A stretch of 35,575 bases of DNA. Origin: Candidatus Bathyarchaeota archaeon. Lineage in GTDB: Archaea; Thermoproteota; Bathyarchaeia; Bathyarchaeales; Bathycorpusculaceae. The notes beneath the pieces are model-generated. The model was not told the origin of the DNA, ran no database searches, and was given only the letters and a program-made list of their open reading frames with translations. Positions 1,048-35,575 of this stretch are shown piece after piece. Position numbers and translations under genes: made by a program. The stretch lies in assembly GCA_016927895.1 (NCBI GenBank), contig JAFGLT010000044.1:1-35575 (forward strand), given 5' to 3'. How positions within the stretch are numbered: position 1 is the first letter of the stretch; each line of letters begins with the position of its first letter.

Positions 1048-1959
1048 TTGACCGCGGTTATCAAAAGCAGCACTTCAAAGCTCACGGCAGCAATCGCTGT
1101 ACTAACGTTCATAGTCGGCGCCACAGCTGTTTCTTATTCTGTGACGCTGTTTTTGGCAAACTATAGCCAGCAAGAGCAGCCAATAGTCTTGCGCGTTACG
1201 CAATGGTCGGGTTACATGGTAGCATCAGATGTGCAAATTGATGTGCAAAATCGTTCTTCTGTGGTGAGCAGCGTCAGTGGTTCTTGGACAGTGCCAGAGG
1301 TGAATGCTTCTGAGAACATGACGTTTTCAGGCGTGTGGGTGGGTATAGGCGGCTACGGAGAAGATACTTTGATTCAGACAGGAACTGAACAGGAATACGT
1401 TAACGGAAAAACTGTCTATTATGCGTGGTATGAACTTTTGCCTGATTATTTAGTTCGCGTCAACAACATTCATCTGCAACCGGGCGACACGATGACAGCC
1501 TCTATAAGCCTCGTAAATGAAAACACGAACACTTGGGCAATAACAATTAGGGATGTCACTCGAGACGAACAATTCAAAAAAACTTTTATCTACAACTCTT
1601 CGCGTTTATCAGCGGAATGGGTTGTTGAGAGGCCAAAGGTTAACGGTACGGTCAGCACTTTAGCGGACTTCGGAAACGTGACATTCACTGAGTGCAAAGC
1701 AACCTTAGACGGCGTCACTGGGGCAATTGGCAATTTTTCCTACGCGCAGCTTGTAATGCAGGAGGAGGATACACCGCTGGTTTCAGTTTCATCCCTTGAC
1801 GGCGACGAATCAGGTTTCACTGTAAGCTACTTGGAACCGCCAAGCCCAACCGCGTCGGCAAACGATTCAGCACAGAATGTTGCAGCCAAAACCGGCGCTT
1901 TCTCAGTGTACACGAAAACTGTGGGTTCCAAAAGGCCCAGAGAATTTTCTTTTGTTTAG
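1048..1959 (+). CDS. Membrane-anchored G1-like (eqolisin/glutamic) peptidase
   Basis: N-terminal TM, then 'GSWTVPEV...FSGVWVGIGG....LIQTGTEQEYVNGKTVYYAWYELLP' and 'SAEWVVERP', matching the G1 family Gln and Glu motif blocks; TTG start. Confidence 0.75.
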   Translation: MTAVIKSSTSKLTAAIAVLTFIVGATAVSYSVTLFLANYSQQEQPIVLRVTQWSGYMVASDVQIDVQNRSSVVSSVSGSWTVPEVNASENMTFSGVWVGIGGYGEDTLIQTGTEQEYVNGKTVYYAWYELLPDYLVRVNNIHLQPGDTMTASISLVNENTNTWAITIRDVTRDEQFKKTFIYNSSRLSAEWVVERPKVNGTVSTLADFGNVTFTECKATLDGVTGAIGNFSYAQLVMQEEDTPLVSVSSLDGDESGFTVSYLEPPSPTASANDSAQNVAAKTGAFSVYTKTVGSKRPREFSFV

Positions 1960-4402: not shown

Positions 4403-5503
4403 TTGGCTATTATGAGATGGGCAGTTTTAGCAACTGCTATCCTAGTCATTGTTTTCTTAATGGCACCATTAGCTCAAAGGGGAAACGTGGAAGCGAATCC
4501 TTATACTTTTAGTCCTGGAGTTTATGTTTACTCTCCAAAACCTGAAAAGGTTTATTGGGAACCAAATGTTGAAATTTCCTTTAAAATCATTCTTGATAAT
4601 GATTTGGCACAAATTAATTCCTTTTTTTACACGTTAGATAACAAAGCTAGGTCCCCGTTGACCTTCACCCGCGGCACGGAAGACCATCATGTTAATTATG
4701 ATAAGTATTATCCTAACTGGGAGACGTATACAGTTAATACAATTACAGTTCATAAAACTCTAAACTTGACTGATGGTACTCACAGAATAGCAGTTTTCGC
4801 TCAATATTCTGATGGAACAATCAAATCTGTTTTTTATAGATCAATAACTGTGGATATAACAGGGGCAATACCCTGCACACCCTTTATTATTTCACCTCTA
4901 AATCAAGCAACCTACAATACTACAGAAGTAGCATTAACTTACACAATAGAAAAAGAGATCCTTTGGTCCTACTATTCCTTAGATTCCGTTGATAACTCTG
5001 ATTTGAAATATTTTGAAGGTAATATGACCCTGCATAGCCTTTCTGAAGGTCAGCATAAGTTGAGATTATATGTAACTGCAAATCTCAAACCCGAAGTAGA
5101 CCCTATGTATGGACAACCCAATTATCATTCAACAGGGCAAACAATCAGCTTTTATGTGGATACAACGCCTCCAAAGGTCAGCAATCTATCCGTTAACGAC
5201 ATGGACTCAGGTGATACGATTCTTAGTTTCACTGTTGATGAAGAAGCAAGCTGGGTTGGTTACAGTTTGGATAATCAAGCAAATGTAACAGTTACTGATG
5301 ATGTTGTTTTAGGAGACTTGCCTATTGGTTCTCACAATGTAACGGTTTACGCTGAGGATACCGCTGGAAACATGGGTGTCTCAGAACCATTTTTCTTTTC
5401 TGTGGTAGAGCCTTTCCCAACTACATTGGTGTTAGCCCCTGTGATGACGGGGACTATTGTCGGCTTAGGTCTGCTGGTTTACTTCAAGAAACGCAAACAC
5501 TAA
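4403..5503 (+). CDS. Secreted/membrane-anchored Ig-like surface protein with VYFKKRKH tail
   Basis: Signal peptide-like N-terminus, Ig-like module 'VGYSLDNQANVTVTDDVVLGDLPIGSHNVTVYAEDTAGN', C-terminal TM then FKKRKH. Confidence 0.8.
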   Translation: MAIMRWAVLATAILVIVFLMAPLAQRGNVEANPYTFSPGVYVYSPKPEKVYWEPNVEISFKIILDNDLAQINSFFYTLDNKARSPLTFTRGTEDHHVNYDKYYPNWETYTVNTITVHKTLNLTDGTHRIAVFAQYSDGTIKSVFYRSITVDITGAIPCTPFIISPLNQATYNTTEVALTYTIEKEILWSYYSLDSVDNSDLKYFEGNMTLHSLSEGQHKLRLYVTANLKPEVDPMYGQPNYHSTGQTISFYVDTTPPKVSNLSVNDMDSGDTILSFTVDEEASWVGYSLDNQANVTVTDDVVLGDLPIGSHNVTVYAEDTAGNMGVSEPFFFSVVEPFPTTLVLAPVMTGTIVGLGLLVYFKKRKH

Positions 5504-9021: not shown

Positions 9022-9654
9022 TCACTTTCTTCGCCTAACAATCAACGCCAACAAAACCGTAATTATCACTGCCACCCCGATCAAGAGCGTGTAAAAAACA
9101 GCAGGGTCCAACCCCAGCAGTTGAGGCTGCCAAATGTTTGTCCTATCGACTATGGTGTTCATTGTATACTCTGGGAACTGTGAGTTTCCTTCAACAAGAA
9201 CGCCTGTGGCTTTGTCCCAGTAATACGTTGTTTCTGAAGTGGATGCGTGCGCAACTGTTCGTGTGGCACCAGCGTAAGTTCTCTCTTCAACGCTACTTAT
9301 GGTTATGTCACCCACGTTTTTGTCGAAGAAAGTGTCCCCGATGTCCAAGTTTGCAGGAATAATGAAGTCGTCTCCAAGCTGCCCCGTCTCCAAATTCAAA
9401 GTGATAGTCATGGTTTCCCTTGTTCCATTTGAATACTCCACTGTGATTTCAACACTGACGCTTTTTCCTTGAACATCCTTAATTTCCATCCTAGCCCACG
9501 TTACGTCGTGCCCCTCAGCAGGAGTTCCCGTGAATTCTACGTGATATTCTATCCAATCGCCAGTTTTCACACCCACAAAAACCTCAGCTAAAACGGTACC
9601 CAAACCAACAAGAACCGTGAACAAGATAATTGTTAAGCAAAGTTTCCTATTCAT
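9022..9654 (-). CDS. Secreted beta-rich protein with C-terminal TM anchor
   Basis: Signal peptide, 'GVKTGDWIEYHVEF', C-terminal 'LIGVAVIITVLLALIVRRRK'. Confidence 0.7.
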   Translation of the reverse strand: MNRKLCLTIILFTVLVGLGTVLAEVFVGVKTGDWIEYHVEFTGTPAEGHDVTWARMEIKDVQGKSVSVEITVEYSNGTRETMTITLNLETGQLGDDFIIPANLDIGDTFFDKNVGDITISSVEERTYAGATRTVAHASTSETTYYWDKATGVLVEGNSQFPEYTMNTIVDRTNIWQPQLLGLDPAVFYTLLIGVAVIITVLLALIVRRRK

Positions 9655-9751: not shown

Positions 9752-10810
9752 TCATAACGGTCTATTCCTGCTTTCTATTAGCTCCCTAACCGTCACCATT
9801 TCTAAGTCAAACCCGTAGCTCATTTTAGCTCGGACTCGCCCTCTGATTGCATCAGCGCCAAAACTGAAGGCAACAAGTGTCCCATTTTTAGCATTGCGCC
9901 GTCCCATTGCAGCCGCGAATTTTTCAATTACTTCTCTGCCGACCCCATCTTCCTGTCTTATCGAGACAGGCTGACCTCCAAGCGTGTACCCGTCTATCCC
10001 CATGCGAACGTCGCTTTGTGAAGCTGATTTGCCGTCCATTCTTTTAAGAACCCAATTTTGAAATTCACTGGGCGGCATTTTTTTAAGGTCTTCTTCCTTT
10101 ACACCCCGTTTCTTCACTACTACAAATGCGGTTATGGCGACCCCTGCAACCACGGCAACAGCAACCAAACCGTATGTGGTTCCGCCGATATCTAGAGCCT
10201 CGTTCTGTTCGCCGCCCTCTACTCCAGTACCACCACAATCTGGACATTCTATGTATCCGGTTCCATCACAGTGCGGGCATTCTATTGTAGCTGGTGCTAA
10301 GCCTGTTCCGTCGCAGTATGGACAAGGAACGTCGTCAGTTTCGAGGGTTATGCTGGTCGAGAATACTTGTTGCTCTTCAAGCGTTTTGTAGTCTTCAGAT
10401 GAAATGCCGCTTATAGTTAAAGAAACCTGGGTATTCTCGTTTGCGGGAAACAGAGTACGCGACGAGGTGCCAGTATACGTTTTGCTTTCGACTTCTACCG
10501 CTGCGGTAACCGTTCCGAAAATGTTAACGGATTCTTCATTTTCGTAACCGACCTGCACCGATATTTTACCATCATTCAGATGGGAAGACCTGCTCTTTTG
10601 AATGATTAAGGGATTCAACGTTCCAGACCCGTCGCAGTGCTCACACACAGCACCTTCTTCCACTGTTCTTTCACCAGTACCGTCGCAGTAAGGGCACTCT
10701 ATCTCGCCCGTTCCATCACATCTTGGACACACCGCCATAGTTAGAGCGACACTCAAGGCTGAACAAAGAAGGAACACAATGAACGCATCCATCAGTGATT
10801 TATTATTCAT
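9752..10810 (-). CDS. Membrane protein with DnaJ-type CxxCxGxG zinc repeats outside and a restriction-endonuclease-like domain inside
   Basis: Repeats CPRCDGTGE, CPYCDGTGE, CEHCDGSGT, CPYCDGTGL, CPHCDGTGY, CPDCGGTGV; one TM 'YGLVAVAVVAGVAITAFVVV'; C-terminal 'DVRMGIDGYTLGGQPVSIRQEDGVGREVIEKFAAAMGRRNAKNGTLVAFSFGADAIRGRVRAKMSYGFDLEMVTVRELIE'. Confidence 0.75.
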   Translation of the reverse strand: MNNKSLMDAFIVFLLCSALSVALTMAVCPRCDGTGEIECPYCDGTGERTVEEGAVCEHCDGSGTLNPLIIQKSRSSHLNDGKISVQVGYENEESVNIFGTVTAAVEVESKTYTGTSSRTLFPANENTQVSLTISGISSEDYKTLEEQQVFSTSITLETDDVPCPYCDGTGLAPATIECPHCDGTGYIECPDCGGTGVEGGEQNEALDIGGTTYGLVAVAVVAGVAITAFVVVKKRGVKEEDLKKMPPSEFQNWVLKRMDGKSASQSDVRMGIDGYTLGGQPVSIRQEDGVGREVIEKFAAAMGRRNAKNGTLVAFSFGADAIRGRVRAKMSYGFDLEMVTVRELIESRNRPL

Positions 10811-11207: not shown

Positions 11208-11639
11208 TTAGTAGAAAAGCTCTTGGCTTTCTTGTTCTTGTTCTGCCTCGGTGTTTTCGGGTATCTCTTGTTCGTTGTCAAGAGCCATTACCCTGATAGT
11301 GTCCTCGTCTTGACCTTGTTCCTCTTCAGGAGCAGAGTTTGTCTCTGTAATGGATTCCTGAGTCTCAGTGTTTTCACTTGCAGTTGTGTCTTGTTCGATT
11401 GGGGTGCCCGTTGCCAACTGCTCCAACCGTGTTTCCAAGTTGGCGATTCTGGATGCTAACTCGCTTATAGTTTGTCTTTTTGCAGCGTTTTCGTTTTTTA
11501 ACTCTTGAATCGCTAGTTTTTCGTTGAGTATTCTGGAGCGCGTCTCCAGTTGCTTTAACTCTTCGTCTAAAGCACGTGATTCTTCTTCTAGGCGTATTTT
11601 TTCGTTGTGTAATTGTTCCATTTCGAGCGGTGTACTCAC
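11208..11639 (-). CDS. Prefoldin-like coiled-coil protein with acidic Gln/Glu-rich tail
   Basis: Heptad-like 'LHNEKIRLEEESRALDEELKQLETRSRILNEKLAIQELKNENA', then a low-complexity E/Q tail. Confidence 0.6.
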   Translation of the reverse strand: MSTPLEMEQLHNEKIRLEEESRALDEELKQLETRSRILNEKLAIQELKNENAAKRQTISELASRIANLETRLEQLATGTPIEQDTTASENTETQESITETNSAPEEEQGQDEDTIRVMALDNEQEIPENTEAEQEQESQELFY

Positions 11640-12013: not shown

Positions 12014-12382
12014 ATGGGAACCGTTCTCGTAGTGGATGATGCAAAATTCATGAGAGCAGTACTCACAAAAATTATCGCGCAATCTGGCCACGAAGTGGTA
12101 GCAGAGGCATGCAACGGCGACGAAGCCATACAACAATTCCAACAAGCAAAACCCGATTTAGTCCTAATGGACATAGTCATGCCACCAGGAACAAGAGCCA
12201 AAGACGGAATCGAAGCTCTCAAGCAAATAGTTTTAGCAAACCCAACAGCGAAAATCGTAATGGTCAGTTCTTATGGCCAACAAGCACTAATAGCTGAAGC
12301 CCTAAAAGCCGGAGCCAAAGACTTCATTGTGAAACCGTTCCAACCTCAAAAAGTGATGGAAGCCCTTGCCAAGTATTGCTGA
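12014..12382 (+). CDS. cheY: Chemotaxis response regulator CheY
   Basis: 'VLVVDDAKFMRAVL', 'LVLMDIVMP', 'IVMVSSYGQ', 'GAKDFIVKPFQ'. Confidence 0.9.
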   Translation: MGTVLVVDDAKFMRAVLTKIIAQSGHEVVAEACNGDEAIQQFQQAKPDLVLMDIVMPPGTRAKDGIEALKQIVLANPTAKIVMVSSYGQQALIAEALKAGAKDFIVKPFQPQKVMEALAKYC

Positions 12383-13022
12383 GGAGCAGCCATTGCCAAC
12401 TAACCTGTTAGATTCACGAAATATAGAGGTAGAGGAACCCGTTTCCTTAGTCGACATCGTGGAACTGCAAAGACTGAGCACACAACTTAACGCACGAGCA
12501 CAAATCGCCGCAAAGTGCACAGCATACCCTCAAGGTAAACCAAACATCGAAGAGGTGCGGGTAGCCATGGCGGAAATGAAAGTCGGAAGCAAACCAATCG
12601 AGCTAGTTACAAACGTTGGATCCTGTGTAGCAATTTGCCTATACGATTCAACTAATAAGTGTGGGGGGTTAGCTCACATCATGCTTCCAAACTCCGCCAT
12701 CGCACCTCAAAACTTTCCTCCATGCAAATTTGCCGACACTGCCATCCCAGCGCTAGTAAAATCTTTACGGGAAACCACCAGAAAAGAAGCGCATTTATCT
12801 GCCAAAATAGCAGGCGGCGCCAATATATTCAAGTTTGAAAACAACGATGGCCCAACAATCGGCGAAAAAAACGTTGAGGCTGTCAAAATGGCTTTGAACG
12901 CCAACAAAATCAAGTTAGTTGCCAAGGATGTTGGAGGGTCCTATGGACGCAGAATCAACTTCAGCATTAGGAGCGGCGTTGTAACTATTCGACGTTCCAA
13001 CGGAGAGATTGAGCACCTATGA
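12366..13022 (+). CDS. cheD: Chemoreceptor glutamine deamidase CheD (start uncertain; N-terminal extension may be partly spurious)
   Basis: 'NVGSCVAICLYDSTNKCGGLAHIMLPNS', 'AKIAGGANIF', 'DVGGSYGRRINFSIRSGVVTIRR'. Confidence 0.9.
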   Translation: MPSIAEEQPLPTNLLDSRNIEVEEPVSLVDIVELQRLSTQLNARAQIAAKCTAYPQGKPNIEEVRVAMAEMKVGSKPIELVTNVGSCVAICLYDSTNKCGGLAHIMLPNSAIAPQNFPPCKFADTAIPALVKSLRETTRKEAHLSAKIAGGANIFKFENNDGPTIGEKNVEAVKMALNANKIKLVAKDVGGSYGRRINFSIRSGVVTIRRSNGEIEHL

Positions 13023-13744
13023 GAAAAAAAAGTAAGAATTCATCAAATAAAGCTGCGGAAAAGAAGGACTTAGAGATGTTTTTGGAGCTCGGCAACATCG
13101 GAGCGGGGCACGCTGCAACTTCATTGTCTGAGATTCTTCAGCAACAAGTAGATATTGATATTCCGCGAGTCGGCACTATCCCACCTGATATGCTGCCTAA
13201 GTTTTATCAAAGTAACAATATGCCAGCAACTGCAGTTTATATCCATCTTATGGGAGAATTAGAGTGCCACTTCCTATTCATTTTCGAACTGCCTGAATTA
13301 AGAGAAATTACATCCCTCATGACAAGAAGCATCTCCCAGAAAGAATGTGAATCTTCTATGGAGTCATCCGCAATAGAAGAACTTGGCAATATTCTAATAG
13401 GGTCATTTCTCACCGCGATTTCTGACTTCACAGGCCTCAACCTTATTTCAACACCTCCTATGCTTATAGGAGCTCCCTTCGACGCTATAATCAACGAGTT
13501 CATGGTGAAATTAGCTTCAGACTCTGGAGACGCATTAGTTTTTGACACATGCTTCAGACGTACAGGCGACTACTATGCACCTACGCAACTTATGATATTT
13601 CCGAGCCCTGAACTGAGAGAGCTACTGATACGGAAATCAAACGAAATCATAGAGGATGAAAAAAGTGACAATGTTGAACTAATCTGTGCTGAAAACTTGA
13701 CCGAACCTGACGACGTAGCAAAATCGCAGGAGACATCAAATTAA
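13019..13744 (+). CDS. cheC: CheC-type CheY-P phosphatase (both ExxN sites intact)
   Basis: 'ELGNIGAGHAATSL...P' and 'SAIEELGNILIGSFLTAISDFTGLNLISTPP', both fitting E-x2-N-x22-P. Confidence 0.9.
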   Translation: MRKKSKNSSNKAAEKKDLEMFLELGNIGAGHAATSLSEILQQQVDIDIPRVGTIPPDMLPKFYQSNNMPATAVYIHLMGELECHFLFIFELPELREITSLMTRSISQKECESSMESSAIEELGNILIGSFLTAISDFTGLNLISTPPMLIGAPFDAIINEFMVKLASDSGDALVFDTCFRRTGDYYAPTQLMIFPSPELRELLIRKSNEIIEDEKSDNVELICAENLTEPDDVAKSQETSN

Positions 13745-13758
13745 TTTGGTGAACGATA

Positions 13759-14442
13759 ATGGTCGGAAAAGCTACAACCATAAAAACCGTTAACGCCAAA
13801 GGAAACTTTAGCGATCTTGAAATACTTCTAGAAATTGGAAGCATGGGCGCTGGGCACGCGACTACTACCCTCTCACAGATGGTGGGTGAACCAATTAAAA
13901 TTGAAGTTCCGCGAGTACATATTGTTGAGCCACATCTGGTTCCTAGAATTTATTCAAAGCACGACACGACCGTCGCGGCTGTTTTCCTGAAGATGAGGGG
14001 GGCTGCAGACTGCGATCTTATGCTGAGTTTTGAGGAGGAAGAATCCAAGAAAATCGCTGAGTTAATGATAAACTCTGTAGAAAAAGAAGTCACGCGCGAA
14101 ATGGAGTTATCTGCTATGGAAGAACTTGGGTCTATAGTATTGTGTTCCTTCCTCAACGCCATGGCAGATTTCACATTGACTAAACTTATGGCAACGCCGC
14201 CAGAGATAATTATTGATTCATTTGACGCAATCATCGACGAACTTCTAATTCAACAAGCGCTCTGCTCAGAAGTTGCAGTAATTTTTGACGCGCGCTTCAA
14301 ACGGCGCAACAGCTCAACAGAAGGTTTTCTCATAACGTTTCCCAGTTACAGTCTTCAAAGAATGCTTGTTGAAAAAGGAAAGGAATGGTTGGGCAATGAA
14401 CTTTCCGTAGAAAAAGACACGCTGCCGCCTTTAATGGGGTGA
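13759..14442 (+). CDS. cheC: CheC paralogue with both catalytic Asn replaced by Ser
   Basis: 'LEIGSMGAGHATTTLSQ' and 'SAMEELGSIVLCSFLNAMADFT'. Confidence 0.88.
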   Translation: MVGKATTIKTVNAKGNFSDLEILLEIGSMGAGHATTTLSQMVGEPIKIEVPRVHIVEPHLVPRIYSKHDTTVAAVFLKMRGAADCDLMLSFEEEESKKIAELMINSVEKEVTREMELSAMEELGSIVLCSFLNAMADFTLTKLMATPPEIIIDSFDAIIDELLIQQALCSEVAVIFDARFKRRNSSTEGFLITFPSYSLQRMLVEKGKEWLGNELSVEKDTLPPLMG

Positions 14443-14474
14443 ATTGAGAAAACGTAAGACATGAATGTGAGAGA

Positions 14475-15434
14475 ATGAAAAACGCACAAGTCAAGCAAAA
14501 CACAGGGAAATCGGGTGAGATGATTTCGGTTGAGGACTTCCTAGAGGATGTAGCCTACCAAAAAATGAAAAAGTTACTGCATGAAAAAGTTGGGCTTGAC
14601 TTTAATGGTTACCGCGAAGAATATCTCAAAAGACGATTTTCAATTCGATTGAGGGCGACGGGCACCAACACTTACAGACTGTATGTACGGTACCTGCAGA
14701 AAAACCCCGATGAGTATAATCGGGTTATCGACAATTTGGTAATTAACTACACTACTTTTTTCAGAGACAAAGACGTTTACGGGTACCTTGAAAAAATCGT
14801 TCTCCCAAGACTTTTCAGGTCTAATAAAGTTAGAATCTGGAGCGCAGGATGCGCGACAGGAGAAGAACCTTACTCGTTGTCAATTTTGGTTCACAAAGTG
14901 CTTGGTAAAAAGCGGGCAAATTATGATGTTAAAATTTTAGCCTCAGACATAGACGAAAACGCTCTAGGTAAAGCTGCAAAGGCTGAGTACAGTAGAAAAC
15001 AACTGAATGGTATGAGAGACTCTTTAATCGCTGAGTATTTTTCGACTAACGGCGAGTCATATCAGGTGAAAGATTTTGTTAAGCAACTGGTTAGCTTTGA
15101 AAGCCATGATTTGATGAAGCCCTCTTTACGTAAAGGCTTTGATCTGATACTGTGTAGGAATGTTATGATATTTTTCTCACGGGAAAGCCAGCAGAAAATT
15201 CACATGCACTTTTACAATACGCTTCGAGAAGGTGGGTACCTTGTGATTGGCAAAGCTGAAGTGCTAAGCGGTCAGCTAAGTCAGCAACTCTTGTGTGATA
15301 ATGTTAACTGCCGAGTTTACCAAAAGTCGTTTAAAGATGGCTACAACAGGTCACCCAGTGAGTTGAGTGTAACGAATGGATACACACTTAACCTAAATAA
15401 TTCATCTGGAGGTCAATGTTTAGTTGCACATTAA
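14475..15434 (+). CDS. cheR: Chemotaxis protein methyltransferase CheR
   Basis: 'NYTTFFRDKDVYGYLEKIVLPRL', 'RIWSAGCATGEEPYSLSILV', 'ILASDIDENAL', 'FDLILCRNVMIFFS'. Confidence 0.93.
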   Translation: MKNAQVKQNTGKSGEMISVEDFLEDVAYQKMKKLLHEKVGLDFNGYREEYLKRRFSIRLRATGTNTYRLYVRYLQKNPDEYNRVIDNLVINYTTFFRDKDVYGYLEKIVLPRLFRSNKVRIWSAGCATGEEPYSLSILVHKVLGKKRANYDVKILASDIDENALGKAAKAEYSRKQLNGMRDSLIAEYFSTNGESYQVKDFVKQLVSFESHDLMKPSLRKGFDLILCRNVMIFFSRESQQKIHMHFYNTLREGGYLVIGKAEVLSGQLSQQLLCDNVNCRVYQKSFKDGYNRSPSELSVTNGYTLNLNNSSGGQCLVAH

Positions 15435-15478
15435 GCTCGAATACGCCTGGAAGAGCAGCACGGGCTCTATAAAGAAAA

Positions 15479-17920
15479 ATGGGTGGTTACTTGCCAATGG
15501 AGACTAATGAGTATAGAGAATTGTTCATCGAAGAGGCAAGGGAACATATTGATGCGCTTACAAAGTCACTTTTGGTTCTGGAGAAAAACAGCGAAAACAT
15601 AGAAGTCGTCAACATGCTTTTCAGGTCAGCCCACACCCTCAAAGGTTCTTCGGGTATGATGGGTTACGCAGACCTCCAAGGCCTCACCCATGCAATGGAG
15701 GACGTTTTTGATGACATGCGAAAGGGAAAAAAGCCTTCAAGCAACCTAATCAGCGTTCTTCTTGAATGTGTAGATGCGCTCTCATCAAAATTAGAGAACA
15801 TACAAAACATGGTTGAAAGAGAAATCAACGTTGCAGATTTAATACTTAAACTTCAAGCGGCATCGGAGCTTCCTGAAGAACCTGAAAAAATTGAAAGCCG
15901 AGAAGAAATTGAAGAAACAACTTTTATACCGATAACAACCCTGGAGAATGTTGGCACCTCGGGTATAGAACTTAGCGAAACAGAAAAAGAAGCCGTATTA
16001 AATGCTGAAAGCTTTGGCGAACACTGCTACTTCGTAGATCTCAAATTCAGCAAAGACTGCGCCTTCAAAAGCGTCAGGTCAATCTTAGTTATAAGCAAAA
16101 TTTCAGAGCTGGCAGAAATAATCAAGACACAACCCGAACAAAGAGAAATTGAAGCCTTTAAAGAGGAAAGGCTTGACTTCGGATTACAAATAGCAATCAC
16201 CAGCAAATATGAAGCAAACGAAATTGAAAAATGCGCCCGACAAGTCTGCGAAATAGAAGCCGTGAGCGTCGCTCCCTTCAATCCTACTGCACCACGGGAA
16301 ATAAAGCTCGCCACCACAGTTGAAACAGAACCAACCATTGAAGCTGAAACAACAATAGCCGCTGAAACAGAAACAGCAGTTGAAACCACAGCAGCAGAAG
16401 AAGTAGAAGCTGAAGAAGAAACCGAAGAAGCTGAAATAGTTGAAACCAGTGAGGCAGAAATCGGCGGTGAAATAGAAGCTGAAGTAGACGAGGAAATAAG
16501 CGACGAACCAGAAGTAGAGTCTTATATTATAAATTCAGCAGAGAGTCTCCCAGAGAGTTCGGCAGAGAACCATCAGCAGACTCCTCAGGTGGCTTTGCTT
16601 GAAGAGCCTGAAGAGCTGGAAGACGAGGAGCCTTTGCCTGTGGAGACCGTTGAAAGCACCACTGTAGAGCTTGAGGAAGCGCCTGTGGCACCTTGTGTTG
16701 ATAAGCCGAGTGGTCAGGTTAGTGAAGCGACGAGGATTTTTGCTGAAGTTCGGGCTGCTCAGACGGTCAGGGTAAAATTTGAGCAGCTTGACAAAATAAT
16801 GAATTTGGTTGGCGAGCTAGTAATAAACAAGATTGCTTTGCTTCAGGTAACTTCGGAGGATACAGGCGGAGAGATAAAACGTATTGCTGGCAACATTGAT
16901 CGTCTCACATCTGACCTTCATGACCTTGTGATGCAGGTGAGGATGGTTCCAGCGTCCCAAATCTTTGACAGGTTTCCGCGGTTGGTGAGGGATATTTCTC
17001 TGCAGAAGGGTAAGGAAATTGACCTTTTGATGGAAGGAAGGGATATTGAAATTGACCGTACTGTGCTAGATGAGATTGGCGAGCCGTTGATACATCTGCT
17101 TAGAAACAGCATTGACCATGGGATAGAGACACCTGACGAAAGAAAGAAAGCGGGCAAGAATCCTGTGGGGAAGATACGGCTGTCAGCGCAGAGGAGCGGC
17201 GACAACGTCATTATTGAGGTTGAAGATGATGGTGCTGGGCTTGACCCAGAGCGGCTTAGGGCGTCTGCGATTGAGAAGGGTTTTGCGAGCGAAGAAGAAG
17301 CTGAGAAGATGAGCCGGAATGAGTTGGTGAGCATGATTTTCCTGCCTGGCTTCTCAACAAGCAATGAGGTTACTGAAACAAGCGGCAGAGGCATCGGGAT
17401 GGATGTCGTGAAGACAAAAATCGCGGCTCTCGGCGGCACTGTTCAGTTTGAAACACGGCGGGGCAGGGGAACAAAGACCAGTATTAAAGTTCCGCTCACG
17501 TTGGCAATAATCAAGGCGATACTCGTACAGGATTCAGGACAGACCTTCACGATACCAACAAGTCAAGTCTCAGAAATCGTCAAAGCAAACAGAAACGACA
17601 TTAAAGTACTGGGGCGAACAGACGCTATAGTCGTCAGAGGCAAAGTCGTTCCAGTTGTTCACTTACACAAGCTACTTGGACTTGAAGGCTCAAACGAAGA
17701 AGAATTTGAGCTTTTAATAACACACCTAGGCGATGAAAAGACAAAGCTCGGTTTAGTGGTGGACTCAGTTCTGAGGCAGCAGGACATCCTAGTGAAGCCT
17801 ATCAGCGACACCTTAAAGAGCGTCAGAGGGATCAGCGGCGCTACAATCCTAGGCGACGGACAAGTAGTACTAGTGTTAGATGTGGGGCAGTTCATCAACA
17901 AAGCGCATCAAAACGCGTGA
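15479..17920 (+). CDS. cheA: Chemotaxis histidine kinase CheA (start may be the ATG at 15497)
   Basis: HPt 'MLFRSAHTLKGSSGMMGY', dimerisation 'IMNLVGELVINK', HATPase 'LLRNSIDHGIETPDERKKAGKNPVGKI', 'GRGIGMDVVKTKIAALGG', CheW-like C-terminus. Confidence 0.95.
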   Translation: MGGYLPMETNEYRELFIEEAREHIDALTKSLLVLEKNSENIEVVNMLFRSAHTLKGSSGMMGYADLQGLTHAMEDVFDDMRKGKKPSSNLISVLLECVDALSSKLENIQNMVEREINVADLILKLQAASELPEEPEKIESREEIEETTFIPITTLENVGTSGIELSETEKEAVLNAESFGEHCYFVDLKFSKDCAFKSVRSILVISKISELAEIIKTQPEQREIEAFKEERLDFGLQIAITSKYEANEIEKCARQVCEIEAVSVAPFNPTAPREIKLATTVETEPTIEAETTIAAETETAVETTAAEEVEAEEETEEAEIVETSEAEIGGEIEAEVDEEISDEPEVESYIINSAESLPESSAENHQQTPQVALLEEPEELEDEEPLPVETVESTTVELEEAPVAPCVDKPSGQVSEATRIFAEVRAAQTVRVKFEQLDKIMNLVGELVINKIALLQVTSEDTGGEIKRIAGNIDRLTSDLHDLVMQVRMVPASQIFDRFPRLVRDISLQKGKEIDLLMEGRDIEIDRTVLDEIGEPLIHLLRNSIDHGIETPDERKKAGKNPVGKIRLSAQRSGDNVIIEVEDDGAGLDPERLRASAIEKGFASEEEAEKMSRNELVSMIFLPGFSTSNEVTETSGRGIGMDVVKTKIAALGGTVQFETRRGRGTKTSIKVPLTLAIIKAILVQDSGQTFTIPTSQVSEIVKANRNDIKVLGRTDAIVVRGKVVPVVHLHKLLGLEGSNEEEFELLITHLGDEKTKLGLVVDSVLRQQDILVKPISDTLKSVRGISGATILGDGQVVLVLDVGQFINKAHQNA

Positions 17921-18629: not shown

Positions 18630-20588
18630 ATGAAGACGAAGAAGACGTTAGCTTTAATTCTGCTGGCAATTCTGTCTTTAGCGCTGCTTTTGACTTTAGA
18701 AAAGGGAAAAGCACAATCATCCAATGGTGACAGCACCATTCGAATTCGGTCCGACGGCATTGTTGAAGGCACCGATAAGATTCAACGTAACGGCAACGTG
18801 TATACTCTTACTGGCAACCTTAATAGTCAAGCTAATTCTGACGAAGCTTTCATTTTTTTGGAGCGAGACAACATAATACTTGACGGCGCAGGCTACACCG
18901 TTCAGGGAAAAGGATACGGAACAGCAATCTACATGCTACGAAGACAATCTGTTACCATTAAGAATTTCAACATCATAGGATTCGAGACAGGCATTAACTT
19001 CTGGACCGTCCGAAATTGGCCATCCGATTCAAAGTTTTGGGGATTGCCACCAGCATCTAACAACAAACTTCTCGACAACAACATAACCGTCGAAGGAACT
19101 GTTAACGGCGCGGAAGCTGGTTGGGCGATTTATCTTCAAGAAGCTATCCGAACTTCTATATCAGGCAACACTTTAATCTCACAAGACCCTAAAGGCGGAA
19201 TTTTCTTCGGTTTTACAACAGCAGAGACATCTTTAGTGAATAACACGTTTGTTACCTGTGGTCTTTTCATCAGGGATTCAAATCAAACTAATGCCATAGG
19301 CAACACGGTTGACGGCAAGCCACTCATCTTGCTTGATGGCGCATCAAATCAGGTCATTAATGATGCGGGCCTCGTCTACCTCTTTAATTCCGAGAACATA
19401 GTCTTAAAAGACATCCAAATTTTGGTTGACTATGGAAAGACTATACAATTAGTAGGATCAAAAAACATCAAAGTGACAAACTGTGAAGGCTATGTTGTTC
19501 TAATAAATTCGGATCACATTACTATTAACGATAATTATCTAAGGACGATTGAACTACTCGAAAGTAATTATAATGAAATCGCCCAAAACACAATCATTAC
19601 AGATGGTGTTTGCATTAACATTTTTGGACCATCCAATCACAATAACATATATGAAAACATTCTTTTGTACAACGCTGATTTTGAAACAACAACTACCTTT
19701 GGCAATTCAGGCGAACAAGCGGGGATAAATCTTGCTCTCGATTGCCAATACAACGATATCCACGGGAACAACATACTCAATCACAGCAATGCAATTGAAT
19801 GCTCCACCAGTTCATCAAATAACATTTATTCTAACAACATTATGAACTCAAATAGTGGAATTACGCTCTCTGCGTCAAACCAGAACACAATTTTCCAAAA
19901 TGACATAGAAAAATGTGGATACGCTGTTAAAATTGTTGGAAGTGACAATGCTTTTTACCATAATAACTTTGTTGAAAACGAACATCAGGTTTCAATATCA
20001 CATCAGACCCTGTTTACGTCCAATATTATAGTTGCTTATTCCACTAACAACACATTCGATTCAGGCTATCCCTCAGGAGGCAATTATTGGAGTGACTACA
20101 ATGGTGATGATGCCGACGGCGACGGCTTAGGAGACACACCTTACGCTGTTTACGAGAACCATACGGATCGCTATCCACTCATGACTCCTGTAGTCTTGGA
20201 CACTACACCGCCTGTTTTAGACACTATGTCACCTTCAATTTCGATTATCTCACCTGAAAACAAGAGCTACATATCGAGCGATGTTAACTTGACGTTTACT
20301 TTAAGTGAAAAAACATCATGGATAGGCTACAGCCTAGACGGACAACATAATGTGACCATAACTGGAAACACAACCTTAAACGGATTGTCATATGACTCTC
20401 ATAATCTTACGATTTACGCTAGAGACAGAACAGGCAACACGGGCGCCTCTGAAACAATAACTTTCTTGATAACGGAGGAAACGGAGCCAGACCCTTTCGC
20501 AACAGCCCTTGTCGTGGCTGCTTCTACAGGAACAGTTGCCATTGTTGGCTTAGGTGTACTGGTCTACTTCAAGAAACACAAACACTAA
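18630..20588 (+). CDS. NosD-like right-handed parallel beta-helix surface protein with Ig-like module and VYFKKHKH tail
   Basis: Repeated 'N.I..N.I......GI.L' rungs, 'GGNYWSDYNGDDADGDGLGDTPYAV', Ig-like module, C-terminal TM + FKKHKH. Confidence 0.85.
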   Translation: MKTKKTLALILLAILSLALLLTLEKGKAQSSNGDSTIRIRSDGIVEGTDKIQRNGNVYTLTGNLNSQANSDEAFIFLERDNIILDGAGYTVQGKGYGTAIYMLRRQSVTIKNFNIIGFETGINFWTVRNWPSDSKFWGLPPASNNKLLDNNITVEGTVNGAEAGWAIYLQEAIRTSISGNTLISQDPKGGIFFGFTTAETSLVNNTFVTCGLFIRDSNQTNAIGNTVDGKPLILLDGASNQVINDAGLVYLFNSENIVLKDIQILVDYGKTIQLVGSKNIKVTNCEGYVVLINSDHITINDNYLRTIELLESNYNEIAQNTIITDGVCINIFGPSNHNNIYENILLYNADFETTTTFGNSGEQAGINLALDCQYNDIHGNNILNHSNAIECSTSSSNNIYSNNIMNSNSGITLSASNQNTIFQNDIEKCGYAVKIVGSDNAFYHNNFVENEHQVSISHQTLFTSNIIVAYSTNNTFDSGYPSGGNYWSDYNGDDADGDGLGDTPYAVYENHTDRYPLMTPVVLDTTPPVLDTMSPSISIISPENKSYISSDVNLTFTLSEKTSWIGYSLDGQHNVTITGNTTLNGLSYDSHNLTIYARDRTGNTGASETITFLITEETEPDPFATALVVAASTGTVAIVGLGVLVYFKKHKH

Positions 20589-26048: not shown

Positions 26049-26082
26049 ATTGTAAATGTGCCGTAGTATTATAGGGATAAGC

Positions 26083-27432
26083 ATGAGTAAAAGCGTTGCA
26101 TTGCTGCTTGTTCTCATCTTCCTAGCCGCGTCAAGTTTAGTTGCGTTTAAGCCTGTGTCTTCTGCTGATTCACCTAGCGGTTATTGGGTGTCAAAAGCTC
26201 CGATGCAATTGGCAAGAAGCGGTTTGGGAGCTGCAACCGTTAACGGGAAAATCTATGCTATAGGCGGTTTCGTAGCTAACGGCGTCGCAACGGGCGCCAA
26301 CGAAGAGTACGACCCATCAACGGATACTTGGGAAACCAAGGTGCCTATGCCTACGCCCAGAGCTCATTTTGCAACAGCAGTCTACCAGAACAAGATTTAC
26401 TGCATAGGGGGAACAGGCGACGGAGTGAACGAGGTCTACGACCCAGCAACGGACACTTGGGAGACTAGGGCGTCTATGCCTACGCCTAGATCTTATGTAA
26501 CAGGTAACGTGGTTAACGGCAAAATATACGTTATAGGCGGAGATTCTAATAAGACTATTAATGAAGTTTATGATCCGGAAACCGATTCGTGGTCTACAGC
26601 AGCTTCTATGCCCACAGGGTCATGGGGTTATGCTTCAGCCGTCGTTGAAAATAAGATATACATTATAGATTCAGACCTGAATCAGATTTACGATGTTGAA
26701 ACTGACATGTGGAGTCTCGGAGCGTCTCCGCCTTTTGGGCGTCTTGGATATGGGAAAGCAGGTGTAACCACGGGCGTAAACGCGCTTAAACGAATTTACG
26801 TTTTAGGCGAGAAGGTCTATGAACAACCAGCTTTGAATCAGGTTTATGACCCCCAGAATGACAGGTGGACGCAGGGCTCTGCTGTGCCGACTTATCGCAG
26901 CGGCTTCAGCGTTGCGGTAGCGGATGACTTGCTTTACGTTATTGGGGGTTATACCGTGAAGGATATCAGTATTAATGAATACCTCAAGACGGGAGAAATG
27001 TACCCGCTTATTTTTTACGCTACAAACGAGCAGTATGTGCCTTTCGGTTATGGTACGCCTGACCCGTCTTATGATGGTACGGCGCCTGAAGTCACGGTTT
27101 CGTCGCCAGAAAACAAAACTTACTACACGACCGACATCGCGTTGAATTTTACTGTTAACGAGCCAGTCTCTCTGATGAGGTATGAGCTTGACGGCGAAAA
27201 CGCTGTTGAAATCTCAGGGAACACGACGCTCACCGGATTATCTTACGGAGCACACAACTTGACCGTTTACGCAACAGACGCTTCAGACAACAAAGGCACA
27301 TCAGAAACAATCGCATTCACCGTAGCTGAGGAACCGCCTTTTCCGACGGCGCTTGTAGCAACAGTTTCCGGCGCATCAGCAACCATAATAGCCGTAGGTT
27401 TGCTGGTCTACTTCAAGAAACGCAAACACTAA
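26083..27432 (+). CDS. Kelch-repeat surface protein with Ig-like module and VYFKKRKH tail
   Basis: Kelch units 'NGKIYVIGGDSNKTINEVYDPETDSWSTAASMPT'; start revised to MSKSVALLLVL; Ig-like module; TM + FKKRKH. Confidence 0.88.
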   Translation: MSKSVALLLVLIFLAASSLVAFKPVSSADSPSGYWVSKAPMQLARSGLGAATVNGKIYAIGGFVANGVATGANEEYDPSTDTWETKVPMPTPRAHFATAVYQNKIYCIGGTGDGVNEVYDPATDTWETRASMPTPRSYVTGNVVNGKIYVIGGDSNKTINEVYDPETDSWSTAASMPTGSWGYASAVVENKIYIIDSDLNQIYDVETDMWSLGASPPFGRLGYGKAGVTTGVNALKRIYVLGEKVYEQPALNQVYDPQNDRWTQGSAVPTYRSGFSVAVADDLLYVIGGYTVKDISINEYLKTGEMYPLIFYATNEQYVPFGYGTPDPSYDGTAPEVTVSSPENKTYYTTDIALNFTVNEPVSLMRYELDGENAVEISGNTTLTGLSYGAHNLTVYATDASDNKGTSETIAFTVAEEPPFPTALVATVSGASATIIAVGLLVYFKKRKH

Positions 27433-28333: not shown

Positions 28334-29737
28334 TTGAGCAAGGTTGCCGCTTTGATGCTTGTTCTTCTAAGCCTAATTGCATCGTGTGTAGCCTTCGTTA
28401 ATGCCGTTTCAGATTCTGAGCGGTCACGCTGGGATACTTGGGGGTCTAAGGCTTCAATGCCCACAGAGAGGGTTACTGTGAGCGCTGCTGTAGTAAAGGG
28501 CAAGATCTACGTCATAGGAGGGAACGGAGACTATCACAATACAAACGAAATGTACGATCCAACAACAGATACATGGACGAAAAAAGCGCCTATGCCAACT
28601 CCGAGAAAAAGTTTCGGCATAGCTGTATATAAAGATAAAATTTACGTGATAGGCGGATTAACCGAGTCAGATGGTGGTTACTATGATGGAATTACTGGCG
28701 CAAACGAGGTTTACGACCCCGCCACAGATACGTGGGAAAACAAGACTTCCCTGCCCACAAGACGATACGGAATAGGTGCAAACGTTATTGGAGGCAAAAT
28801 CTACGTTATAGGCGGAAAGAACGCCTCTGGCCGGATTGACGAAGTAAACGAGGTTTATGACCCAACCACGGACACATGGACGAAAATGGCGCCTTTACCG
28901 ACCCGGGTTAGTTTTTACGCGTCTGCAGTAGTTGACAACAAAATCTACGTGATTGGGGGCACCAATGGTTCAGTTTATGGCGATTTAACTCAGATATATA
29001 ACCCTGAAACTGACACGTGGAGTAAGGGAGCGCCTATTCCCTTCCCCGTTACTGGTGTGGGTGCCGGTGCAACCACTGGGGTCTGGGCGCCAAAAAGAAT
29101 CTATGTTATAGGTGCTGTCCAGCCTTATGGTTTAGCGGATCAAGGAGGAAACGTGATCGTAGTCAACAATGTTCAAAATCAAATTTATGACCCAGAAAAA
29201 GACGCTTGGACCACTGGCGCAGCATTGCCTATAGCGAGAATTCTGTTTGGGGTCGCTGTAGTGGACGATATGTTGTACGCAATTGGAGGCACGAACTCGA
29301 TGATTTTCTCTTCTTACATCACTTTCGGAGATAATCAACAATACACGCCCTACGGATATGGAACAATTTCGCCCGTGGTTTCTGTTGTATCTCCTCAAAA
29401 CAAAAAATACATCTCTGGCAATGTTTCGTTAGCTTTTGCGGTGAACAAGCCATTTATGTGGACGGGCTACAGCCTTAACGGACAAGACAACATAACAATC
29501 ACGGGCAACACCACTCTATCGGGATTATCAAGCGGCTTGTACAACATAACCGTATACGCAAAAGACTCGTTTGAAAACACTGGGGCTTCAGAAACAATCA
29601 CTTTCAGAATAACAGAGCCTTTCCCAACCATGTTTGTCGCAGTCGCTACTGTGGCAGTGACTGTTGGCTTAGGTCTTATTGTCTACTTCACAAAAAACAA
29701 GAAAAAACAGGTTGTAAACGCGACGAAAGGTTCTTAA
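28334..29737 (+). CDS. Kelch-repeat surface protein with Ig-like module and a divergent C-terminal tail
   Basis: Kelch units 'NEVYDPTTDTWTKMAPLPTR'; Ig-like module; C-terminal 'VGLGLIVYFTKNKKKQVVNATKGS'; TTG start. Confidence 0.87.
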   Translation: MSKVAALMLVLLSLIASCVAFVNAVSDSERSRWDTWGSKASMPTERVTVSAAVVKGKIYVIGGNGDYHNTNEMYDPTTDTWTKKAPMPTPRKSFGIAVYKDKIYVIGGLTESDGGYYDGITGANEVYDPATDTWENKTSLPTRRYGIGANVIGGKIYVIGGKNASGRIDEVNEVYDPTTDTWTKMAPLPTRVSFYASAVVDNKIYVIGGTNGSVYGDLTQIYNPETDTWSKGAPIPFPVTGVGAGATTGVWAPKRIYVIGAVQPYGLADQGGNVIVVNNVQNQIYDPEKDAWTTGAALPIARILFGVAVVDDMLYAIGGTNSMIFSSYITFGDNQQYTPYGYGTISPVVSVVSPQNKKYISGNVSLAFAVNKPFMWTGYSLNGQDNITITGNTTLSGLSSGLYNITVYAKDSFENTGASETITFRITEPFPTMFVAVATVAVTVGLGLIVYFTKNKKKQVVNATKGS

Positions 29738-34744: not shown

Positions 34745-35575
34745 TTGGAAAATTATATTACAAAAAGACTAGCTCTAATCTTGGCATTGTTAATGCTATT
34801 GCCGTTATGCTATTTTAGCCATGAAGCGAAAGCTGATACCTTAAGTCCATTAGTGGATAGGTCTGAGGAACTGAATGTAACTGCTGTTATAGAAATTAAT
34901 TCTCCTCAAAACACAACATATTCTACACGTGAAATTCTATTAAATTTCACCTTGGTATATGAAGGACAGGATTATGACGTTGGCTATAGTGTAGATGGAG
35001 GAGCTATTCAAAGAATACAGGTATCTAAAATTTCAGAAAAGCCAGCTCCTTACCTGTTTATGCCACCTTATGTTAGGGTTACTTGTAGGGGCACTATTGT
35101 TCTTAGAGATTTGTCAGATGGTATCCACGCCATTGTAGTTTATGGTGGGTATTATTATGGAGGAATAAATCAGAGATTTGAAGTTTTCAAACGTGCTTCC
35201 ACAAACTTTACCATAGATACAGTTGCACCAAATATTTCACTTCTGTCTCCAGAAACCAAAGTCTACAATATTTCTACTTTATCTTTGAACTTCACAGTTA
35301 ATGAGCCAGTTTCACAATTAACATACAGCTTGGACGGACAAAAGAATGTAACTATTTCTGGAAATACAACATTAACCAACCTTTCTTATGGTGAGCATAA
35401 TGTTACAGTTTACGCAACAGATGAAGTAGGAATCATTGGTGTATCAGAAACAATCTCATTCACTATTACAGAACCACCTGAACCTTTCCCAACAACACTG
35501 GTCGTAGCTTCTGTTATCACAGTAGTAGTTGTAGGCATAGGTCTGATAGTCTACTTCAAGAAACGCAAACACTAA
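34745..35575 (+). CDS. Ig-like surface protein with VYFKKRKH tail
   Basis: N-terminal signal peptide; two Ig-like modules; 'PFPTTLVVASVITVVVVGIGLIVYFKKRKH'. Confidence 0.83.
   Translation: MENYITKRLALILALLMLLPLCYFSHEAKADTLSPLVDRSEELNVTAVIEINSPQNTTYSTREILLNFTLVYEGQDYDVGYSVDGGAIQRIQVSKISEKPAPYLFMPPYVRVTCRGTIVLRDLSDGIHAIVVYGGYYYGGINQRFEVFKRASTNFTIDTVAPNISLLSPETKVYNISTLSLNFTVNEPVSQLTYSLDGQKNVTISGNTTLTNLSYGEHNVTVYATDEVGIIGVSETISFTITEPPEPFPTTLVVASVITVVVVGIGLIVYFKKRKH

What the first reader, a model, noticed from the sequence alone, without database searches (positions are those of the whole stretch)
9752..10810. DnaJ zinc repeats linked through the membrane to a restriction-endonuclease-like domain with altered active site
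Six CxxCxGxG units flank a beta-domain on the N-terminal (predicted extracytoplasmic) side, followed by one TM and a C-terminal domain whose 'GIDGY..GGQPVSIRQEDGVGREVIEKFAAAMGRRNAKNGTLVAFSFG' resembles the PD-(D/E)XK domains in DNA methylase-associated nucleases ('GIDG...P.QVKQS..VGR..ID.F...'). The usual Q-x-K is S-I-R here, so catalysis may be lost and only binding retained. A membrane-bound nuclease-like domain with redox/zinc-sensing ectodomain is an unusual architecture.
Basis: partly seen in the sequence, partly recalled or inferred. Interest (0 to 1): 0.7.

Follow-up and report, generated by a model that had tools for sequence, protein, structure and literature searches.

The report
Archaeal surface receptor with pseudo-nuclease tail
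In one family of Bathyarchaeia, a membrane protein joins a zinc-stapled rod on the outside of the cell to a worn-out DNA-cutting domain on the inside, a conserved combination I found described nowhere, which probably binds something (DNA or a partner) rather than cutting it.

Summary
The gene (window 9752-10810, MINUS strand, 352 aa) encodes an N-terminal signal/anchor, three CxxCxGxG units, a beta-sandwich, three more units, one TM helix and a C-terminal domain. That domain has a genuine Mrr-type PD-(D/E)XK fold: AlphaFold pLDDT 91, pTM 0.82; best viral structural match a phage 'restriction endonuclease' (E 1.2e-8, TM 0.71); profile-profile match to Mrr domains prob 95.6, control 0.1. Thirteen species of one Bathyarchaeia family carry the full architecture; all 12 cysteines are invariant and dN/dS is about 0.14-0.31. 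The catalytic site is eroding: Asp kept (12/13), Q/E position highly variable (Ser here), Lys lost in 3/13 (Arg here). Motif spacing is mirror-symmetric (11-17-beta-15-11; 17-15-15-beta-15-15-17 in a 4+4 relative), implying a nested, DnaJ-like zinc-stapled rod with the beta-sandwich at its tip. Relatives share the TM-pseudonuclease core, one with a linker instead of the rod, one with a TIR domain behind it. Best reading: a receptor or tether whose inner domain binds rather than cuts. Redox or zinc sensing is not shown. New variant of a known kind; ligand and partner unknown.

The parts
9752..10810 (-). whole gene, 352 aa plus stop
   Evidence: open frame; 12 full-length orthologues in the family; dN/dS 0.14-0.31 where dS is measurable
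10730..10810 (-). N-terminal hydrophobic signal peptide or anchor (residues 1-27)
   Evidence: hydropathy, basic residues before it, in all 13 type A proteins
10622..10729 (-). N-terminal zinc arm, CxxCxGxG motifs 1-3 (residues 28-63)
   Evidence: cysteines invariant in 14/14; spacing
10331..10615 (-). beta-sandwich between the arms (about residues 66-160)
   Evidence: AlphaFold strands, pLDDT mostly 92-98; Foldseek hits to beta-sandwich proteins
10223..10324 (-). C-terminal zinc arm, CxxCxGxG motifs 4-6 (residues 163-196)
10109..10165 (-). transmembrane helix (about residues 216-234), K/R cluster after it
9770..10096 (-). cytoplasmic Mrr-type REase-like domain (about residues 239-347)
9992..9994 (-). 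Asp273 (GAC), retained catalytic-type Asp of GIDG
9962..9964 (-). Ser283 (TCG) at the Q/E position of QxK
9956..9958 (-). Arg285 (AGA) at the Lys position of QxK

Best explanation
A single-pass (type I) membrane receptor or tether. Outside the cell, two mirror-image arms of CxxCxGxG units pair with each other (1-6, 2-5, 3-4), each pair holding one metal, probably zinc. This makes a short rigid rod that carries a beta-sandwich at its tip. One TM helix leads to a cytoplasmic domain akin to the Mrr-type nuclease domain fused to some DNA methylases. In this gene the domain is probably catalytically dead (Asp kept, Gln to Ser, Lys to Arg) and works as a binding module, most likely for nucleic acid, otherwise for a protein partner through the REase dimer surface. 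Shown by computation: architecture, fold, homology, erosion of the site, purifying selection. Inferred: metal identity, nested pairing, inside/outside topology, non-catalytic binding, direction of signalling.
For: Fold: AlphaFold model of the C-domain, pLDDT 90.7, pTM 0.82. Viral library top hit 'Restriction endonuclease' E 1.2e-8, TMq 0.71. PDB hits are the RPB5 subunit (prob up to 1.00, E 1.6e-3), EcoT38I and FokI (prob 0.96). hhalign to bona fide Mrr domains prob 95.6, E 1.2e-8; ectodomain control prob 0.1. Pfam Mrr_cat is hit by 22/27 members at E<=1, best 1.4e-6. Non-catalytic: in nine Mrr domains of the same class D and K are invariant; here K is R/R/N in 3 of 13 and the Q/E column ranks 111 of 118, while W253, I284, Q286, F298, G310, A314 and F315 are invariant. 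dN/dS 0.15-0.23 in the C-domain and 0.14-0.31 in the ectodomain where dS is measurable. In the TIR-fused relatives the D is gone and the K mostly gone while the fold core stays. Rod: equal arms in 14/14 and mirror spacing, 11-17|15-11 and 17-15-15|15-15-17. Topology: acidic ectodomain (-8 to -27), basic C-domain (+5 to +11), K/R cluster after the TM.
Against: Most of the 13 members keep both D and K, and two (L009, L010) keep the full D-Q-K set, so catalysis in some orthologues is not excluded. Arg285 rests on one base of a metagenome-type draft assembly. DNA binding is supported only by net charge and ancestry. No partner is suggested by gene neighbourhood: neighbours differ between genera. 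Model coordinates were not readable, so zinc geometry and motif pairing were not measured.
Confidence: 0.45

Rival explanations
1. An active or conditionally active membrane-anchored nuclease that guards the envelope against incoming DNA; S-x-R in this gene is a tolerated variant or a local loss.
For: D273 kept in 12/13 and K in 10/13; two orthologues keep D-Q-K. A cytoplasmic membrane-anchored PD-(D/E)XK guard was proposed for COG4741 (PMC1189080).
Against: Q/E position is nearly unconstrained and K is replaced in three species by R or N; K is rarely replaceable in this superfamily (general knowledge). TIR-fused paralogues lost both D and, mostly, K.
Confidence: 0.2
2. A membrane adaptor of an immune-like pathway: the REase-like domain pairs with the same domain of the type C paralogue and switches its TIR domain.
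For: Type C carries the same TM-REase module with a CAP12/PCTIR TIR; A or B occurs together with C in nine Bathycorpusculum genomes; REase domains often dimerise (general knowledge).
Against: The window genome has no PF10137 protein and only one copy of the domain; A occurs without C in genera g1, g4 and g25, and C without A or B in G018 and G033.
Confidence: 0.15
3. An extracytoplasmic folding factor: the zinc arms act as a J-less chaperone or disulfide isomerase, as proposed for plant BSD2/PSA2-type proteins, and the inner domain is mainly an anchor or regulator.
For: DnaJ-type CxxCxGxG motifs; J-less DnaJ zinc-finger proteins act at thylakoids (PMC4806229, PMC5915565).
Against: Mirror-symmetric arms around a beta-sandwich look structural; type B keeps the inner domain after the zinc rod is gone, so the inner domain is not just its anchor.
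Confidence: 0.12
4. The C-terminal domain is not REase-like and the resemblance is chance.
For: This sequence alone is below the Pfam Mrr_cat cut-off.
Against: Structure and profile evidence agree.
Confidence: 0.02

Closest known systems
C-terminal Mrr-type domain of DNA methylases (Bathyarchaeia example L071; Pfam Mrr_cat PF04471)
   Same: Homology along the whole domain: GI(D/N)G, P-x-x-(I/V)-K-Q, VGR..(V/I)..F, IVAF.F
   Different: No methylase here; fused to a TM and zinc ectodomain; Q to S and K to R in this gene
COG4741 and RmuC membrane-helix PD-(D/E)XK proteins (PMC1189080)
   Same: N-terminal membrane segment and PD-(D/E)XK fold; COG4741 predicted cytosolic and proposed as a guard against foreign DNA
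   Different: COG4741 keeps a catalytic E-(V/I)D-E(V/I)K motif and no zinc ectodomain is described; sequence kinship not tested here
Inactive REase domains of defence systems (BREX/BR helicases, PMC12839542; NACHT-associated iREase PF22722)
   Same: PD-(D/E)XK fold with degenerate motif, proposed to sense nucleic acid or nucleotides
   Different: Those sit with NTPases or helicases; this one is on a single-pass membrane protein with no NTPase; PF22722 match is weak
DnaJ/Hsp40 zinc domain (PF00684) and J-less zinc-finger proteins (BSD2, PSA2, FIP, anti-TRAP)
   Same: CxxCxGxG-type units, probably nested zinc pairs as in DnaJ
   Different: Six units in two mirror arms around a beta-sandwich, predicted extracytoplasmic, no J domain, no DnaJ C-terminal domains
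RPB5 N-terminal domain of RNA polymerase
   Same: Top PDB fold match; from general knowledge (SCOP) a REase-like fold with no nuclease activity
   Different: No sequence kinship shown; a cytoplasmic/nuclear polymerase subunit

Membership tests
PD-(D/E)XK superfamily, Mrr_cat (PF04471) | REase-like alpha/beta core fold | tested here: met
   AlphaFold pLDDT 90.7, pTM 0.82; Foldseek to a restriction endonuclease E 1.2e-8
PD-(D/E)XK superfamily, Mrr_cat (PF04471) | profile homology to Mrr domains | tested here: met
   hhalign prob 95.6, E 1.2e-8, control 0.1; this sequence alone is below Pfam's cut-off
PD-(D/E)XK superfamily, Mrr_cat (PF04471) | catalytic D...(D/E/Q)xK | tested here: not met
   D273 present, but Ser283 and Arg285 in place of Q and K
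PD-(D/E)XK superfamily, Mrr_cat (PF04471) | nuclease activity | not testable with these tools
   needs biochemistry
DNA methylase-REase fusions | N-terminal DNA methylase domain | tested here: not met
   no methylase match in P0001; present in L071
DnaJ / Hsp40 | J domain and DnaJ C-terminal domains | tested here: not met
   only the CxxCxGxG part matches
DnaJ / Hsp40 | CxxCxGxG zinc-binding units | tested here: met
   six strict motifs, 12 Cys invariant in 14/14; PF00684 32.2 bits against cut-off 32.7; metal binding itself not tested
NACHT-associated inactive REase (PF22722) | profile match | tested here: inconclusive
   8/27 members at E<=1, best 0.011; not listed for this sequence
NACHT-associated inactive REase (PF22722) | NACHT NTPase in the same protein | tested here: not met
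   none in P0001
CAP12/PCTIR TIR effectors (PF10137) | TIR-like domain | tested here: not met
   absent from P0001 and its genome; present in type C, 28.1 bits over cut-off 24.7
COG4741 membrane nucleases | sequence kinship to the COG4741 domain | not tested
   layout compared from PMC1189080 only

The most novel reading that the evidence does not exclude
A surface-receptor signalling system of Bathyarchaeia in which a nuclease fold was recruited as a non-catalytic cytoplasmic signalling or nucleic-acid-binding domain; interchangeable ectodomains (zinc rod, linker) sit outside, and in some genomes the same module carries a TIR effector, giving an archaeal outside-to-TIR immune-like pathway.
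Probability: 0.12. Interest if true: 0.85.

Novelty: new variant of a known kind. Interest (0 to 1): 0.5.

Why it matters
It shows a restriction-nuclease fold that looks like the inner half of a membrane receptor, with relatives running from a catalytically complete DNA-methylase-linked domain through eroded membrane forms to a TIR-fused paralogue, nearly all inside one archaeal family. It also gives a simple, testable design rule: mirror-symmetric CxxCxGxG arms making a zinc-stapled rod with a domain at its tip. If the inner domain binds DNA, the protein would be a chromosome-to-envelope tether or an outside-to-DNA sensor in a group with almost no experimental cell biology.

Tried and rejected
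Single-protein scan of genome contigs with P0001 found no relative, and profile A1 had no stretch conserved enough to use; a closer alignment worked and supplied organism names. PADLOC: only weak matches. PDB sequence search with P0001 gave only low-scoring hits, and with the C-domain profile only LlaBIII, E 0.39. Full-length Foldseek search was dominated by beta-sandwich proteins with low TM-scores, so the C-domain was folded alone. A defence-island or operon explanation was tried and dropped: in Bathycorpusculum, types A and B share one chromosomal position beside the tRNA-splicing endonuclease gene, and neighbours differ in the other genera. A PDB sequence search with the TIR of type C gave only chance-level hits. 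Papers: no description of the combined architecture found among the open-licence papers searched. Considered and rejected: calling it a DnaJ (no J domain), a restriction enzyme (motif not met), or a mobile/defence element (vertical synteny).

Full report
What is there. The gene is on the minus strand, 10810 to 9752, 352 aa. It has six strict CxxCxGxG motifs, at residues 28, 39, 56 and 163, 178, 189; shuffling the protein 20,000 times never gave more than one. A hydrophobic N-terminus, an acidic ectodomain, one TM helix (near residues 216-234 here) and a K/R cluster just after it are present in all 13 orthologues. This is the expected pattern of a type I membrane protein with the C-terminus inside; topology is inferred from hydropathy and charge, not measured.

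Where it occurs. Organism names of close relatives place the family in Bathyarchaeia, with genus g5 matching Candidatus Bathycorpusculum. The complete architecture (type A) was found in 13 of 91 genomes of the same family, plus one broken copy with stop codons in G023. Searches of 163 genomes of the order, about 257 of the class and a sample of 400 of the phylum found no type A outside that family. In the window's genome the domain is single-copy.

Four further arrangements share parts of it. Type B: signal peptide, Pro/Thr-rich linker, TM, same inner domain (L014-L018). Type C: signal peptide, short linker, TM, same inner domain, then a CAP12/PCTIR TIR domain (PF10137, E 2.2e-6, above cut-off). 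Type D: DNA methylase with the same domain at its C-terminus (L071 intact; L019 a remnant). Type E: the zinc ectodomain and TM without the inner domain (L024). In a maximum-likelihood tree B is one clade nested among A, C is one strongly supported clade, and the two D sequences group. In Bathycorpusculum types A and B sit at the same chromosomal position next to the tRNA-splicing endonuclease gene, so B looks like A with its ectodomain replaced by a linker, inherited vertically rather than carried on a mobile element.

The inner domain. AlphaFold on a 26-sequence alignment gave mean pLDDT 85 for the full protein and 95-98 over most of the inner domain; folded alone it gave pLDDT 90.7 and pTM 0.82. 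Foldseek against viral structures: top hit a phage 'Restriction endonuclease', E 1.2e-8, TMq 0.71, with several more such annotations among the 11 hits below 1e-3. Against the PDB: the RPB5 subunit of RNA polymerase (prob up to 1.00, E 1.6e-3), EcoT38I and FokI (prob 0.96). That RPB5's N-terminal domain is itself REase-like and non-catalytic is from general knowledge (SCOP). hhalign of the 27-member profile against nine bona fide Mrr domains from the same class: prob 95.6, E 1.2e-8; the ectodomain profile as control gave prob 0.1. Pfam Mrr_cat is hit by 22 of 27 members at E<=1, though this sequence alone is below the cut-off.

The active site. The nine Mrr domains of the same class have invariant D and K and mostly Q two before K. 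Here D273 is kept in 12 of 13 type A proteins; position 283 is S/L/Q/A/Y/R and ranks 111 of 118 columns in conservation; position 285 is K in 10, R in 2 (this gene and L005), N in 1. Two orthologues (L009, L010) keep D-Q-K. In type C the D is gone and the K mostly gone. The core residues W253, I284, Q286, F298, G310, A314 and F315 are invariant, and C-domain dN/dS is 0.15-0.23 for pairs with measurable dS. So selection holds the fold while the catalytic positions wear away. I infer a binding role; residual activity in members with D and K is not excluded. The C-domain's net charge of +5 to +11 is compatible with nucleic-acid binding but is weak evidence.

The ectodomain. All 12 cysteines are invariant in 13 type A proteins and in L024. 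Motif-to-motif spacings are mirror images about the beta domain: 11, 16-18 | 15-16, 11 in type A, and 17, 15, 15 | 15, 15, 17 in the 4+4 relative L024. The short strands predicted between motifs 1-2, 2-3, 4-5 and 5-6 (residues 36-38, 47-55, 171-177, 186-188) fit antiparallel pairing of the two arms. The economical reading is nested pairing as in DnaJ (1-6, 2-5, 3-4), a zinc-stapled rod holding the beta-sandwich at its tip. No J domain or DnaJ C-terminal domain is present, so it is not a DnaJ. Nothing tested supports redox or zinc sensing.

Mechanism and rivals. Best supported is a receptor or tether with a non-catalytic inner domain (0.45). An active envelope nuclease remains possible for some orthologues and has a proposed precedent in COG4741 (PMC1189080). 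An adaptor role with the TIR paralogue fits nine Bathycorpusculum genomes that have A or B together with C, but the window genome lacks a PF10137 protein. A chaperone-like ectodomain has plant precedents at thylakoids, but the inner domain persists in type B after the zinc ectodomain is gone.

Known versus new. Membrane-anchored PD-(D/E)XK domains and inactive REase sensor domains are both described (PMC1189080, PMC12839542). The combination with a mirror-armed zinc rod, and the shared module with a TIR paralogue, were not found in the open-licence papers searched; most subscription papers were not searchable. I rate it a new variant of a known kind.

Noticed in passing
L020-L022, L026-L030, L111: Paralogue family: signal peptide, TM, the same REase-like domain with D and mostly K lost, then a CAP12/PCTIR-type TIR domain (L021 is cut by the contig end); a membrane-tethered pseudo-nuclease-TIR protein in Bathycorpusculum. 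The listed ORF of L111 (G031) starts just before the REase-like domain and may lack the signal peptide.
   Followed up: partly
L024 (G027:C21): Secreted/TM protein with 4+4 CxxCxGxG units around a beta domain and mirror-symmetric spacing 17-15-15|15-15-17, no inner domain.
   Followed up: partly
L023/L155 (G023:C84:2817-3848): A type A gene broken by several stop codons: recent loss in one species.
   Followed up: no
window 4403-5503, 18630-20588, 26056-27432, 28334-29737, 34745-35575: Five surface proteins (including Kelch and NosD/beta-helix types) share an Ig-like module and a very similar C-terminal anchor 'PFPT.(L/F)V...VGLG.LVYFKKRKH'-like, possibly a sorting signal.
   Followed up: no
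window 12014-17920: Chemotaxis cluster cheY-cheD-cheC-cheC-cheR-cheA directly beside the gene; the same order is seen in same-genus G083 (L079).
   Followed up: partly
window 11208-11639 (-): Coiled-coil-like, acidic-tailed protein without a Pfam match, upstream of the gene in all three genomes of the genus.
   Followed up: no
window 9022-9654 (-): Secreted protein with C-terminal TM directly downstream (97 bp gap), also beside the gene in G082 (L080).
   Followed up: no
L156 (G227:C69): 580-aa protein with a DnaJ-type zinc insert and hydrophobic segments in another family of the class; a different protein with CxxCxGxG units.
   Followed up: no
window 1048-1959: Peptidase A4 family protein in an archaeon, PF01828 E 4.9e-33.
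   Followed up: no
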